Part shown: piece after piece, positions 53,001-56,000 of the stretch | Layout: every line of letters starts with the position of its first letter | Numbering within the stretch: position 1 is the first letter of the stretch | NCBI RefSeq assembly: GCF_028583425.1 | Contig: NC_072801.1 | Location: forward strand, 19,302,001-19,366,000 | Direction of reading: 5' to 3' | Source of the DNA: Eublepharis macularius | Lineage: Eukaryota > Chordata > Lepidosauria > Squamata > Eublepharidae | Length of the DNA: 64,000 nt | Program-made: the position numbers and the translations under genes | Notes under the pieces: generated by a model | What the model was told of the DNA's origin: nothing | The model's database searches: none | Seen by the model: the letters and a program-made list of their open reading frames with translations, nothing else

Positions 53001-56000
53001 CAGTTACTATGGGGACATACAATGAAAGAGGGCCATCGCCTTTCTGTCTTGCTAATGGGATTTATTTATTTACATTATTTATAGTCTGCCTTTCTCACTG
53101 AAACTCAAGGCAGATCACACAGTTTAAATGAGTAGAGTCAGTTTCAAGGACATTTCAATAAACAATGCCATAAAAGTATATAAATGCAAATCTGCAAGAT
53201 TTAAAACCAACAGAAATTCAATACAGAATTGAAGAAGTGCTGAAAGAGAGCATAAGCAATTCTCTGGCCGTTATTGGACTGGATGGGCTCTGGTTTCTGA
53301 TCCAGCCGGGTTCTCCCTACAGGTTTTGTGATACATCGCTTACCTGTCTCAGATCATTCAGCCCCATCCAGATATCCGTGGCTATTCCAGGCACTCGGCT
53401 GTTTACCAGGTCATACACGAATACATTCTCTTCCCAGCTGCCAACAACAGCAAAAAATTAATATGTAGAATCAAAGGGAAATCCACCAGAGGACTAGGGT
53501 AATAACTTACCTGGCTTGCCACTAGGCAGTTTGCCAGAAGGACAACTAGGGTTGCCAACTCCAGGGTGGGAAATCCTTGGAGATTTGGGGATGGAGCCTG
53601 GGCTAAGTAGGAACTGGGGAGGAGAGGGGCCTCAGCAGGGAAAAGGCCACAGAGTTCACCCCCCAAAGCAGCCGTTTTCTCCAAGGGAACTGATCTGTGT
53701 AGTGGGGAGATCAGTTGTAATTCTAGATTTCCAGGCCCCTCTTGGAGGCTGGCAACCGTAACTGAGCAACTGATATAATACACCATGACACTTGGTGCCT
53801 ACAACACTTGAGTGATTTTGGAGACAGGGAGACCCTAGTTAAGATTTTAACTTGAATGCAAAGAGTGCCGTCATTTCACATACCAAGTCACACTGTAAGT
53901 CTGCTCTCTGCTTTTTAGTCAAAAAAGCCATTTTTAATTCTAGTGCATGCATCTGATGAAGAGAGCTGTGGTTCTTGAAAGCTTACGCTACAATAAAATT
54001 GGTTAGTCTTAAAGGTGCTACTGGACTTTTTACTATTTTGCAACTACAGACTAACACGGCTAGCTCCTCTTAATTCTAGTGGCTACTTCTTGCATGTGGG
54101 GGTCATGTCCACCAAACATCATCTGGAGGAAGACTTTGCTTTTCCTCTTACGGTTCCTTTCCTAATTCTAGCAGTGTGCAAGAAGGTTGCTGGGGTGGTA
54201 AAAATAGATTTGGCAGAAAGATTCTTGCTTTTCAACCCTTACCTGTGAATGGAAGCCAGCTTGGCAGATTTGAGACCAATGGAAAACTCAGCACAGTATA
54301 AATCTGCCTCAGCCCATGTTTTGTTGATGGGGAAGTATCTGTAACAGTATCCTTCATATTCGGTCCAGAAGAGAGGGCAAGAGTAAGATAGAATTGGCTC
54401 TGGCAAAGCTGAGGGAGGGATAAAAATACCCGTTAGAGGTGCATACAGGGCCATAGCCAGGTTTTCTTGTTCAGTGGAGCCACCTGGGCCATTTCCACAT
54501 GGCTTGCCTTCCCTTGGAATGACCTGGAACATCGCGCCAAAAACAGATCGCGTTTTCTCGTGCAAGAAAACGCGATCTTCTGCGTTTTTGGCACGATGTT
54601 CCAGGTCATTCCAAGGGAAGGTAAGCCATGTGGAAATGGCCCTGATTTCCATTTGGGTTACCAAGAAATGAATGGAACACCATTGGTTTGCTCATAGCAC
54701 AACAAAAACTTCTAAAATTCTGCCCCCAAGCTCAAGTGGCTCTGTGTGTTTTAGCACCTATTACTTGTTAGAACAAAAGCTTATGCCGGAATCTGTTCTG
54801 TCTTTTGTCTTGCCAGATTCCTTTTTAATTTTGAACAGATGTAGTGGTTCTTCAGGTCAGAAGGTTTTACTTATAATAATATTGAAAAGTTTCCTCCTCT
54901 TTATCTTTTTCTAAGCACCCTGCCATGCTCAGAGTCCAAATATATGAGACTGTTTCAGGATCACTTAAGCATAAAGATATGATAGCTTGCGCTTGAGCTA
55001 CAAGAAAGGCAGGGTATAAATATTTGAATAAAGAAAAATGTTCTCTGTGCCTGGAAGAGCAGAGGTTGGGCAGAGGTGGAGTGGGAGGTGGATGGAGAAT
55101 GGATTATTACCATTTTGAAAAAGCCGGATTTTTAAAAATCAGAGTCCTACCAATTTTAAAACACAGTTCTCTGTTTTTAAATGGAAGCCATCAAAGTACA
55201 ATCATGACTCTGGTTGAAGGGAAGGAGGACTTATTTTTTTCTAAACAATGTTGTTAAATTTAGAGCATTGGACTAGGATCTGGGAGACCAGGGTTCAATC
55301 CCTCATGCTGCCCGGAAGCTCCATGGATCGTACTTACTGTCAGCCTAACCTGCCTTGCAGGGTTGTTGTGAGGCCAAAACAGGAACCATGTATGCTGCCT
55401 TGAGCTCCTTGTTGTAAGGGTGGAATAAACAGGTGACAGAGGATGGGAAATTCTTAGGGTGAAGCTGCGCTCCAAGTGGAACAGCAACGCTCTCCTTAGC
55501 TATGGTCCTGGTTGTATATCAGCCCGGCACTTTTTCTGTTAGACTATTTGCTGCAGGTAGCACCATTCCCTCGCTACCAGTCTTGGAAAGTGCTCGCACC
55601 AGCAGATTACAAAGGTCAGGAAGCCGTTCCTATCTCAAGAGCTGCCCACAACTGTGGTCAGAATGAATAAGCAGCAGCTGTCATGTTGTGCCATCTCAAC
55701 ACTACAGATTACAGGCAGCACAAGAAAGGAAGTCTGGTAGGAGCCAGCAGAAACAAAGATAAAAGAGCTTCACAATCACAGATTAGATAAACCACACTGC
55801 ACAAAAAAGACATCCGTGTCTTTTAAACAGTCTGTCCCTTTCCCTCCTGTCAATCTCACTCAAAGCAGGGATTGGATGGTTTGGGGAGGCAACATGCTGC
55901 ATGAGGAAGTTCAGTTTCCGAAGGGGGCCTTATCTGGAATTCCCTTGTCGAAAGAGCAAGGGCCTCTTCACACAACCAGCAACTGGAATAAAGTCCGGAT

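What the first reader, a model, noticed from the sequence alone, without database searches (positions are those of the whole stretch)
53946..54069. Short retroposon that begins with a hammerhead-ribozyme-like core
A 124-bp insert with a perfect 12-bp target-site duplication starts at the first strand of a hammerhead stem I. The core order is CTGATGA, stem II, GAAA, then GCTT. Across the family in this window two helices covary: stem I is GCAT with ATGC here and GTAT with ATAC at 5.4 kb, and stem II is GAGAA/TTCTC in other copies but GAGAGC/GGTTCTT here. Stem III is only the palindrome AGCT, so cleavage would need a dimer. One extra base lies between CTGATGA and stem II in every copy, including the Penelope element at 47-49 kb. 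The shared oddity suggests one lineage of ribozyme-bearing retroposons, with the short form moved by Penelope machinery. Hammerheads in Penelope-like elements are already known; a small stand-alone squamate family with this geometry may not be.
Basis: partly seen in the sequence, partly recalled or inferred. Interest (0 to 1): 0.8.

Follow-up and report, generated by a model that had tools for sequence, protein, structure and literature searches.

The report
Penelope retrotransposon leader with minimal hammerhead
The 124-base insert is not a separate ribozyme-bearing retroposon: it is the start of the RNA of a common Penelope-like jumping element, copied into the genome on its own, and its hammerhead-like fold is of a kind already known from such elements.

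Summary
The insert has a perfect 12-bp target-site duplication, an intact hammerhead core with one extra base before stem II, and a palindromic two-base stem III; but stem I here is GCAT/ACGC (A.C mismatch), not GCAT/ATGC. It is the leader of a coding Penelope-like element (PLE): ten of ten coding-copy 3' ends examined carry it, and one copy (L142) shows reverse transcriptase motifs, GIY-YIG endonuclease, stop, TATA box and leader in a row. Of 100 loci examined 72 have a head-to-head inverted arm, usually ending near q93 while the other arm ends near q124-134. This matches the two start sites and 'tail' of the Anolis PLE PAc. The 5' end lies about 30 nt below a TATA box, so it is most likely the transcript start; 0 of 60 direct arms begin at the predicted cleavage site. 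Compensatory changes between families support the fold; Rfam models miss it and cleavage was not tested. Unexpectedly, one inverted leader pair in a PLE 3' UTR has same-strand A-to-G changes in both arms (10-16 and 16-17 per copy, seven copies), as if a hairpin RNA was ADAR-edited and copied back; at least 40 near-identical copies exist.

The parts
53934..53945 (+). left target-site duplication TTAATTCTAGTG
53946..54069 (+). single-arm PLE leader insertion, q1-q124 (q = position minus 53945)
   Evidence: same segment at the 3' end of coding PLE copies
53949..53952 (+). hammerhead stem I, 5' strand GCAT (the last four bases of the ATGCAT palindrome at 53947-53952)
53953..53959 (+). core CTGATGA, followed by the extra A at 53960
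53961..53976 (+). stem-loop II GAGAGC-TGTG-GTTCTT (two G.U pairs)
   Evidence: pair counts on relatives
53977..53984 (+). GAAA, palindrome A-GC-T (stem III), and T17 before the predicted cut (53984|53985)
53985..53988 (+). stem I, 3' strand ACGC; A.C mismatch with GCAT in this copy
54037..54043 (+). position (q92-98) near which the shorter arm of two-armed copies ends: inner reverse-transcription start, inferred
   Evidence: 54 of 72 inverted arms end at q86-98
54070..54081 (+). right target-site duplication TTAATTCTAGTG
21420..21692 (.). two-armed (head-to-head) leader insertion of the same family with the 13-bp duplication TCAATATTAATAG at both ends; inverted arm about 21427-21527, direct arm about 21557-21679
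13901..14022 (+). further leader copy of the same family
47429..49524 (-). PLE of a second lineage (RT domain in Pfam; a GIY-YIG-like motif read by eye) with an inverted arm, 13-bp duplication TTTGGCATGGAAG at both ends and a 28-nt tail (49484-49511) on one arm only; hammerhead cores at 47535-47494 (-) and 49389-49430 (+)
5402..5441 (-). hammerhead-like leader of another family (GTAT/ATAC stem I)

Best explanation
The insert is the leader of an endonuclease-bearing Penelope-like element, made by PLE machinery. Shown by sequence: the leader follows the RT-EN reading frame and a TATA box in coding copies; most loci examined have two inverted arms, commonly inside one target-site duplication; one arm usually stops near q93 and the other near q124-134; many 5' ends lie at q-6 to q7. 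Inferred: transcription starts at about q1, just 5' of hammerhead stem I. The PLE protein cuts both DNA strands, and each strand primes reverse transcription inside the leader, one at the inner and one at the outer start site. Both cDNAs run to the RNA 5' end and join head to head through the ATGCAT palindrome. Because synthesis starts inside the leader, the leader nearest the RNA 5' end gives a product of about 90-130 nt rather than a whole element. The window copy is the case where only the outer-site cDNA was kept. The fold is a minimal PLE-type hammerhead that would need two RNAs to form stem III. Its role is not shown, and the RNAs copied in the insertions examined were uncleaved at the predicted site.
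For: L142, one contiguous copy: open frame with GIY-YIG (24.3 bits, cut-off 22.6) and a partial RT match (23.4, below its cut-off of 29.6), then stop, TATATAT and the leader; the RT reaches Pfam's cut-off in L101 (43.8 against 29.6). 10 of 10 coding-copy 3' ends fetched carry the leader. 72 of 100 distinct loci have an inverted arm within 450 bp; 54 of those 72 arms end at q86-98 and 1 beyond q110. Duplication score of 9 or more (matches minus twice the mismatches, at most one mismatch): 47 of 71 two-armed loci against 0.35% of 2000 mismatched flank pairs. The window PLE shows the same plan with a tail on one arm only. PAc in vitro cuts and extends both strands and starts at two internal sites that bound the 30-40-bp tail, mostly 111-118 nt into the ORF (PMC11167929, main text read). 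Of 60 direct arms from the two searches not selected on the 5' half, 22 begin at q-6 to q7, 24 run 15 nt or more upstream, 14 begin inside, none at q39-41. A TATA-like stretch lies about 30 nt above q1 (counted by eye).
Against: The window copy itself has no inverted arm, and 28 of 100 loci had none detected within 450 bp (in some, longer elements put the far end outside the stretch). A duplication was not found in 24 of 71 two-armed loci, and in only 3 of 28 others was one found. The transcript start is inferred, not mapped. Arms of one insertion share unusual letters far more than random pairs (35 against a mean of 5.3; 14 against 1.4), so two random RNAs are excluded; one RNA used twice, or two RNAs from one source, is needed in most cases, while L106 and L139 look like two different sources. 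4 of 60 direct arms begin at q36-38, close to but not at the cut. L118 has a tail on both arms. Sampling is biased: few candidates are scored per DNA search and common words are skipped.
Confidence: 0.87

Rival explanations
1. A stand-alone non-autonomous family (SINE-like or retrozyme) that begins with a hammerhead and borrows PLE enzymes.
For: Leader-only copies are numerous. A unit of leader, 3' UTR, TATA and leader recurs in set 3. Metazoan retrozymes are suspected to use PLEs (PMC7229834, passages).
Against: The 124 bases are contained in coding PLE copies, and the leader-UTR-leader unit also turned out to be the 3' part of coding copies in 7 of 11 loci fetched (read by eye). No Rfam tRNA or 5S match lies on the insert. 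The TATA box lies outside the 124 bases (no promoter scan was run). It is shorter than the 170-400 nt of described retrozymes.
Confidence: 0.07
2. The 5' boundary is set by ribozyme self-cleavage or dimer processing.
For: The insert begins at stem I, and tandem hammerhead units of 41 or 52 nt occur in some loci, where dimers could form in cis. 4 of 60 direct arms begin at q36-38.
Against: Cleavage would give ends at q40, not q1; 0 of 60 direct and 0 of 37 inverted arms in sets 2 and 3 begin at q39-41. The 41-nt units carry a T-to-G change at the cut base. PAc catalytic mutants insert normally in vitro, and no RNA-seq ends were found at its cut.
Confidence: 0.04
3. The inverted arms arise by snap-back self-priming at the palindrome, as suggested for rotifer PLEs (PMC3846280, passages), not by priming from both target strands.
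For: Palindrome ATGCAT at the junction; arms of one insertion share source letters.
Against: The second arm usually stops near q93, at the place of a second RT start, instead of copying the first arm to its end. L106 and L139 have arms from different variants. PAc extends both strands.
Confidence: 0.2
4. A chance look-alike of a hammerhead with no ribozyme ancestry.
For: Motif frequency is at chance in the window; no Rfam hammerhead match up to E 10; this copy has a stem I mismatch.
Against: Compensatory changes between two families and the same core with other stems in a further PLE lineage, 14 of 14 copies fetched; its likely published relative PAc cleaves with protein.
Confidence: 0.04

Closest known systems
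PAc, the Poseidon PLE of Anolis carolinensis (PMC11167929; main text section read, figures not seen)
   Same: Hammerhead at the junction of pLTR and ORF, two internal RT starts that bound the tail, stems I and II named but no stem III. [quoted passage not shown]
   Different: The leader of this finding belongs to another PLE lineage (RT of L142 33% identical over 206 residues to the window PLE), has stops in its leader, and lies just below a TATA box.
Endonuclease-bearing Penelope elements of Adineta vaga (PMC3846280; passages read)
   Same: Inverted pLTR at the 5' side, a 31-bp tail on one of the inverted pLTRs, palindromes at junctions, short target-site duplications, TATA box in the pLTR.
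   Different: There the plan is described mainly for longer elements; here most of the loci examined are leader-only.
Minimal PLE hammerheads (Cervera and De la Pena 2014; paper not held, known here through citing passages)
   Same: Minimal type I order, no real helix III; working as dimers is recalled from the paper's abstract, not seen in a call.
   Different: Whether the extra base before stem II is described there could not be checked.
Metazoan retrozymes (PMC7229834; passages read)
   Same: Non-coding, hammerhead-bearing, possibly moved by PLEs.
   Different: Canonical hammerheads with loop contacts in short tandem repeats, and circular RNAs of about 170-400 nt; not shown here.

Membership tests
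Endonuclease-bearing Penelope-like element | ORF with reverse transcriptase and GIY-YIG endonuclease in the source element | tested here: met
   L142 and L101; the 124-nt copy itself has no ORF
Endonuclease-bearing Penelope-like element | short variable target-site duplication | tested here: met
   12 bp at the window copy; 47 of 71 two-armed loci
Endonuclease-bearing Penelope-like element | inverted pLTR arm with a tail on one side only | tested here: met
   family: one exception L118; window PLE; absent in the one-armed window copy of the finding
Minimal (PLE-type) hammerhead | core CTGANGA ... GAAA | tested here: met
   window copy; core letters intact in 5 of the 10 coding leaders and in 14 of 14 leaders of the second lineage
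Minimal (PLE-type) hammerhead | paired stems I and II | tested here: inconclusive
   stem I broken by an A.C mismatch in this copy; 95.0% and 85.9% of cells paired over 26 distinct sequences of two families
Minimal (PLE-type) hammerhead | self-cleavage at the predicted site | not testable with these tools
   no RNA data; no direct arm of 60 begins at q39-41
Rfam hammerhead families | covariance-model match | tested here: not met
   no hammerhead hit in the window or six relatives up to E 10
SINE | RNA polymerase III gene-derived head | tested here: not met
   no Rfam tRNA or 5S match on the insert; boxes A and B not scanned separately
Metazoan retrozyme | short tandem repeats with canonical hammerhead and circular RNA of about 170-400 nt | tested here: not met
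   124 nt, minimal fold; tandem units seen are 41 or 52 nt; circular RNA not testable

The most novel reading that the evidence does not exclude
Inverted leader pairs left by PLE insertion make hairpin transcripts that the host edits. One such pair landed in the 3' UTR of a coding PLE, its hairpin RNA was edited A-to-I on both arms, and the edited RNA was reverse transcribed and founded a PLE subfamily with many near-identical copies whose first hammerhead is dead. If so, RNA editing wrote a new retrotransposon lineage, and an intact hammerhead in that leader is not needed for spread.
Probability: 0.75. Interest if true: 0.65.

Novelty: new member of a known kind. Interest (0 to 1): 0.45.

Why it matters
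The structure of PLE insertions has been hard to explain. These copies show, in large numbers and in small, easily read form, what the two RT start sites found in vitro seem to leave behind in a genome: two inverted arms, one with a tail and one without. They also warn that short leaders can be mistaken for a new ribozyme family. The A-to-G marked subfamily makes a link between inverted leader pairs, RNA editing and new retrotransposon lineages directly testable.

Tried and rejected
Rfam hammerhead models: no hit at gathering or up to E 10. Two random RNAs per insertion: I first inferred this from the C/T difference at q41 between arms, but the DNA search skips common words and so may favour direct arms with C there; at non-CpG sites arms share letters, so I dropped it. 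Hammerhead cleavage as source of the 5' ends: rejected on end positions. A 41-nt unit ending near the cut looked like a cleavage product at first; it runs past the cut and has a changed cut base. The pair count rests mainly on one split between two families, so few independent events; in it the row for the 5.4-kb window copy was cut seven bases off and lacks stem I, and two of its five measures (pairs with a two-sided change, further pair types) do not exceed shuffles. The three-lineage alignment A2 was out of register and was not used. A one-directional editing excess in ordinary copies: A>G 386 against T>C 217 in 220 matches, but common polymorphisms inflate it; inconclusive. The first run of that count returned nothing, probably because of the BLAST settings. 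A sequence search of solved structures with the L142 frame gave one insignificant match.

Full report
What was checked. The insert at 53946-54069 is flanked by TTAATTCTAGTG on both sides. The core is as described, with one correction: stem I is GCAT with ACGC, an A.C mismatch. The wider family mostly has ATGC there: in the loci found with a query that did not cover this part, 14 of 15 direct arms and 15 of 16 inverted arms have T at that site (set 2). The bare motif occurs at chance frequency in the window, and Rfam's hammerhead models do not match, so the case rests on the family.

What it is. A genome search with the 124 bases scored 40 of 1273 first-look candidates and listed 66 matches. 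One copy, L017, has coding sequence between its arms. Its last 93 residues, used as a query, gave 150 scored matches of 19,688 candidates. I fetched the 3' ends of ten of the 150: all ten run from the end of the reading frame through about 100 nt and a TATA-like stretch (TATATA or a close variant) into the hammerhead leader. Read by eye, they stop near the inner site in six, at the outer site in three, and earlier in one (L072). L142 shows reverse transcriptase motifs (below Pfam's cut-off in this partial frame), a GIY-YIG domain above the cut-off, the stop, TATATAT and the leader in one contiguous copy; the RT domain passes the cut-off in L101. The insert is therefore a PLE leader. Its PLE is distinct from the one at 47-49 kb (RT 33% identical over 206 residues).

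How copies are built. I collected 100 distinct loci from three searches (fetched): 40 from the whole 124 bases, 22 from q60-124, 38 from a coding copy's q60 to about q131. An inverted arm lies within 450 bp in 72 of 100. Of these 72 arms, 54 end at q86-98, 12 earlier, 5 at q103-110 and 1 at q133 (L118). The direct arms run to q117-135 in the loci tabulated, for which they were selected. Target-site duplications enclose both arms: score 9 or more in 47 of 71 two-armed loci, in 3 of 28 others, and in 0.35% of 2000 mismatched flank pairs. In another family, found with a query that lacks the tail, I read 20 loci by eye: 7 have one short and one tailed end, 2 (L084, L097) have an inverted arm that stops early, and in 11 both ends could not be read. 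The window PLE at 47429-49524 has the same plan: 13-bp duplication, inverted arm, 28-nt tail on one arm only. This agrees with PAc, which cuts and extends both strands in vitro and starts at two sites whose interval is the tail (PMC11167929, main text read), though in vitro no difference in start site between strands was seen; and with the inverted pLTR and single tail described in rotifers (PMC3846280, passages).

Why it begins at the hammerhead. A TATA box lies about 30 nt above q1 in coding copies and above the corresponding base in the other family (counted by eye). In the two sets not selected on the 5' half, 22 of 60 direct arms begin at q-6 to q7, 24 reach 15 nt or more upstream, 14 begin inside, and none at q39-41, where cleavage would put an end. 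Four begin at q36-38; they run two to four bases past the cut. Of 37 inverted arms in these sets none begins at q39-41. A transcript start at q1 fits; cleavage does not. In the lineage of the window PLE the hammerhead lies some 360 nt inside the arms, so 'begins with a hammerhead' is not a general PLE property.

One RNA or two. Within an insertion the arms share non-consensus letters: 35, at non-CpG sites, against a mean of 5.3 and a maximum of 13 in 500 shuffles for 49 loci, and 14, at all sites, against 1.4, maximum 9, for 14 loci of set 3. Yet L106 has arms that differ at several linked upstream letters, and in L139 only one arm carries a short deletion that is seen in other loci. The arms thus usually come from one source, sometimes from two.

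The ribozyme. Two families differ by two-sided changes at three pairs (C-G to U-A in stem I; A-U to U-A and A-U to G-C in stem II), a fourth pair doing so in one sequence. Over ten pairs and 26 distinct sequences 89.5% of cells pair, against 80.0% in shuffles and at most 46% in slid controls; 32 cells carry a two-sided change against 14 in shuffles; but the number of pairs with such a change (4 against 3.7) and the number of pair types (8 against 8.3) do not exceed shuffles. The lineage of the window PLE has CCT/AGG, GCCAG/CTGGC and the palindrome ACGT instead of AGCT in 14 of 14 copies fetched, again with one extra base (T) before stem II (by inspection). This supports descent of one hammerhead design, from few independent events. 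The published text on PAc implies the same extra base, since its start codon begins at stem II after G8 and its cut lies 26 nt beyond the codon. Activity of the present leader is unknown.

An edited lineage, found on the way. In set 3 an upstream leader copy differs from the downstream leader of the same element by 14-18 A>G changes in nine loci aligned over 119-123 bases (L117, 118, 122, 133, 135, 137, 138, 140, 141). Four other loci with an upstream leader were aligned: L121 (11 A>G in 96 bases), L126 (3 in 65), and L104 and L131, which do not show the pattern (1 of 6 and 4 of 29 differences). The sites are shared, lie between q11 and q75 apart from single private ones, and two of them (q20, q26) are common polymorphisms. 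A search with this form scored 40 of 1990 candidates, all 40 at 98-100% identity over 123-125 bases. In eleven fetched copies it is preceded by an inverted arm, long in nine and only the innermost bases in L161 and L169. In seven I compared both arms with the leader downstream: the inverted arm, which lacks a middle piece, has 10-16 A>G and at most 1 T>C, the direct arm 16-17 A>G and at most 1 T>C, per copy. The same strand shows A>G in both arms, and the unpaired tail does not; the rest of the element was not tested. CCTTTACA stands on both sides of the pair in the 3' UTR, which is uninterrupted (there CCTTAACA) in L078, L080 and L142. This is what ADAR editing of a hairpin RNA followed by reverse transcription predicts. 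By upstream neighbour in one copy (L163), TA sites are edited in 6 of 7 (direct) and 3 of 4 (inverted), CA in 0 of 2 and 1 of 6, but GA in 4 of 8 and 3 of 5, which is against the enzyme's published avoidance of upstream G (PMC2873906, passages). My searches for such a case (listings, and passages of one paper) showed general accounts of RNA and DNA editing of retroelements but not this; the library lacks most subscription papers.

Literature. Hammerheads in PLEs are known. In the listings of searches I saw no account of leader-only inverted insertions in squamates; this is a limited open-access library.

Noticed in passing
L159, L160, L162-L168 and L117-L141 (genome G000); e.g. L163 oriented 430-625: Inverted leader pair in a PLE 3' UTR with 10-16 and 16-17 A>G changes on the same strand in its two arms (seven copies compared), shared by a subfamily (40 of 40 scored matches 98-100% identical): looks like ADAR editing of a hairpin RNA fixed by reverse transcription.
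   Followed up: partly
L011, L015, L027, L039, L040, L045, L053 (52-nt units); L007, L024, L033 (41-nt units): Tandem hammerhead units between or within the arms with recurrent junctions; the 41-nt units carry a T-to-G change at the cut base. Template switching at the RNA 5' end or inheritance from a source; not resolved.
   Followed up: partly
L158: Insertion whose direct arm is the A>G form of the leader, so a leader with a destroyed hammerhead core served as template; an intact-looking leader may lie further along the same RNA.
   Followed up: no
window 1636-1789; L097 157-247: Inverted leader pairs give sub-threshold Rfam microRNA-precursor matches (up to 56 bits against a cut-off of 80), a possible source of false microRNA annotation.
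   Followed up: no
window 54486-54642 and 62505-62640: Two further near-perfect inverted repeats (59 nt, 97%; 61 nt, 93%), origin not examined; the first lies 0.4 kb downstream of the insert.
   Followed up: no
window 11941-12065: 5S rRNA-like match just above Rfam's threshold and a weaker one at 20635-20743, perhaps 5S-derived repeats.
   Followed up: no
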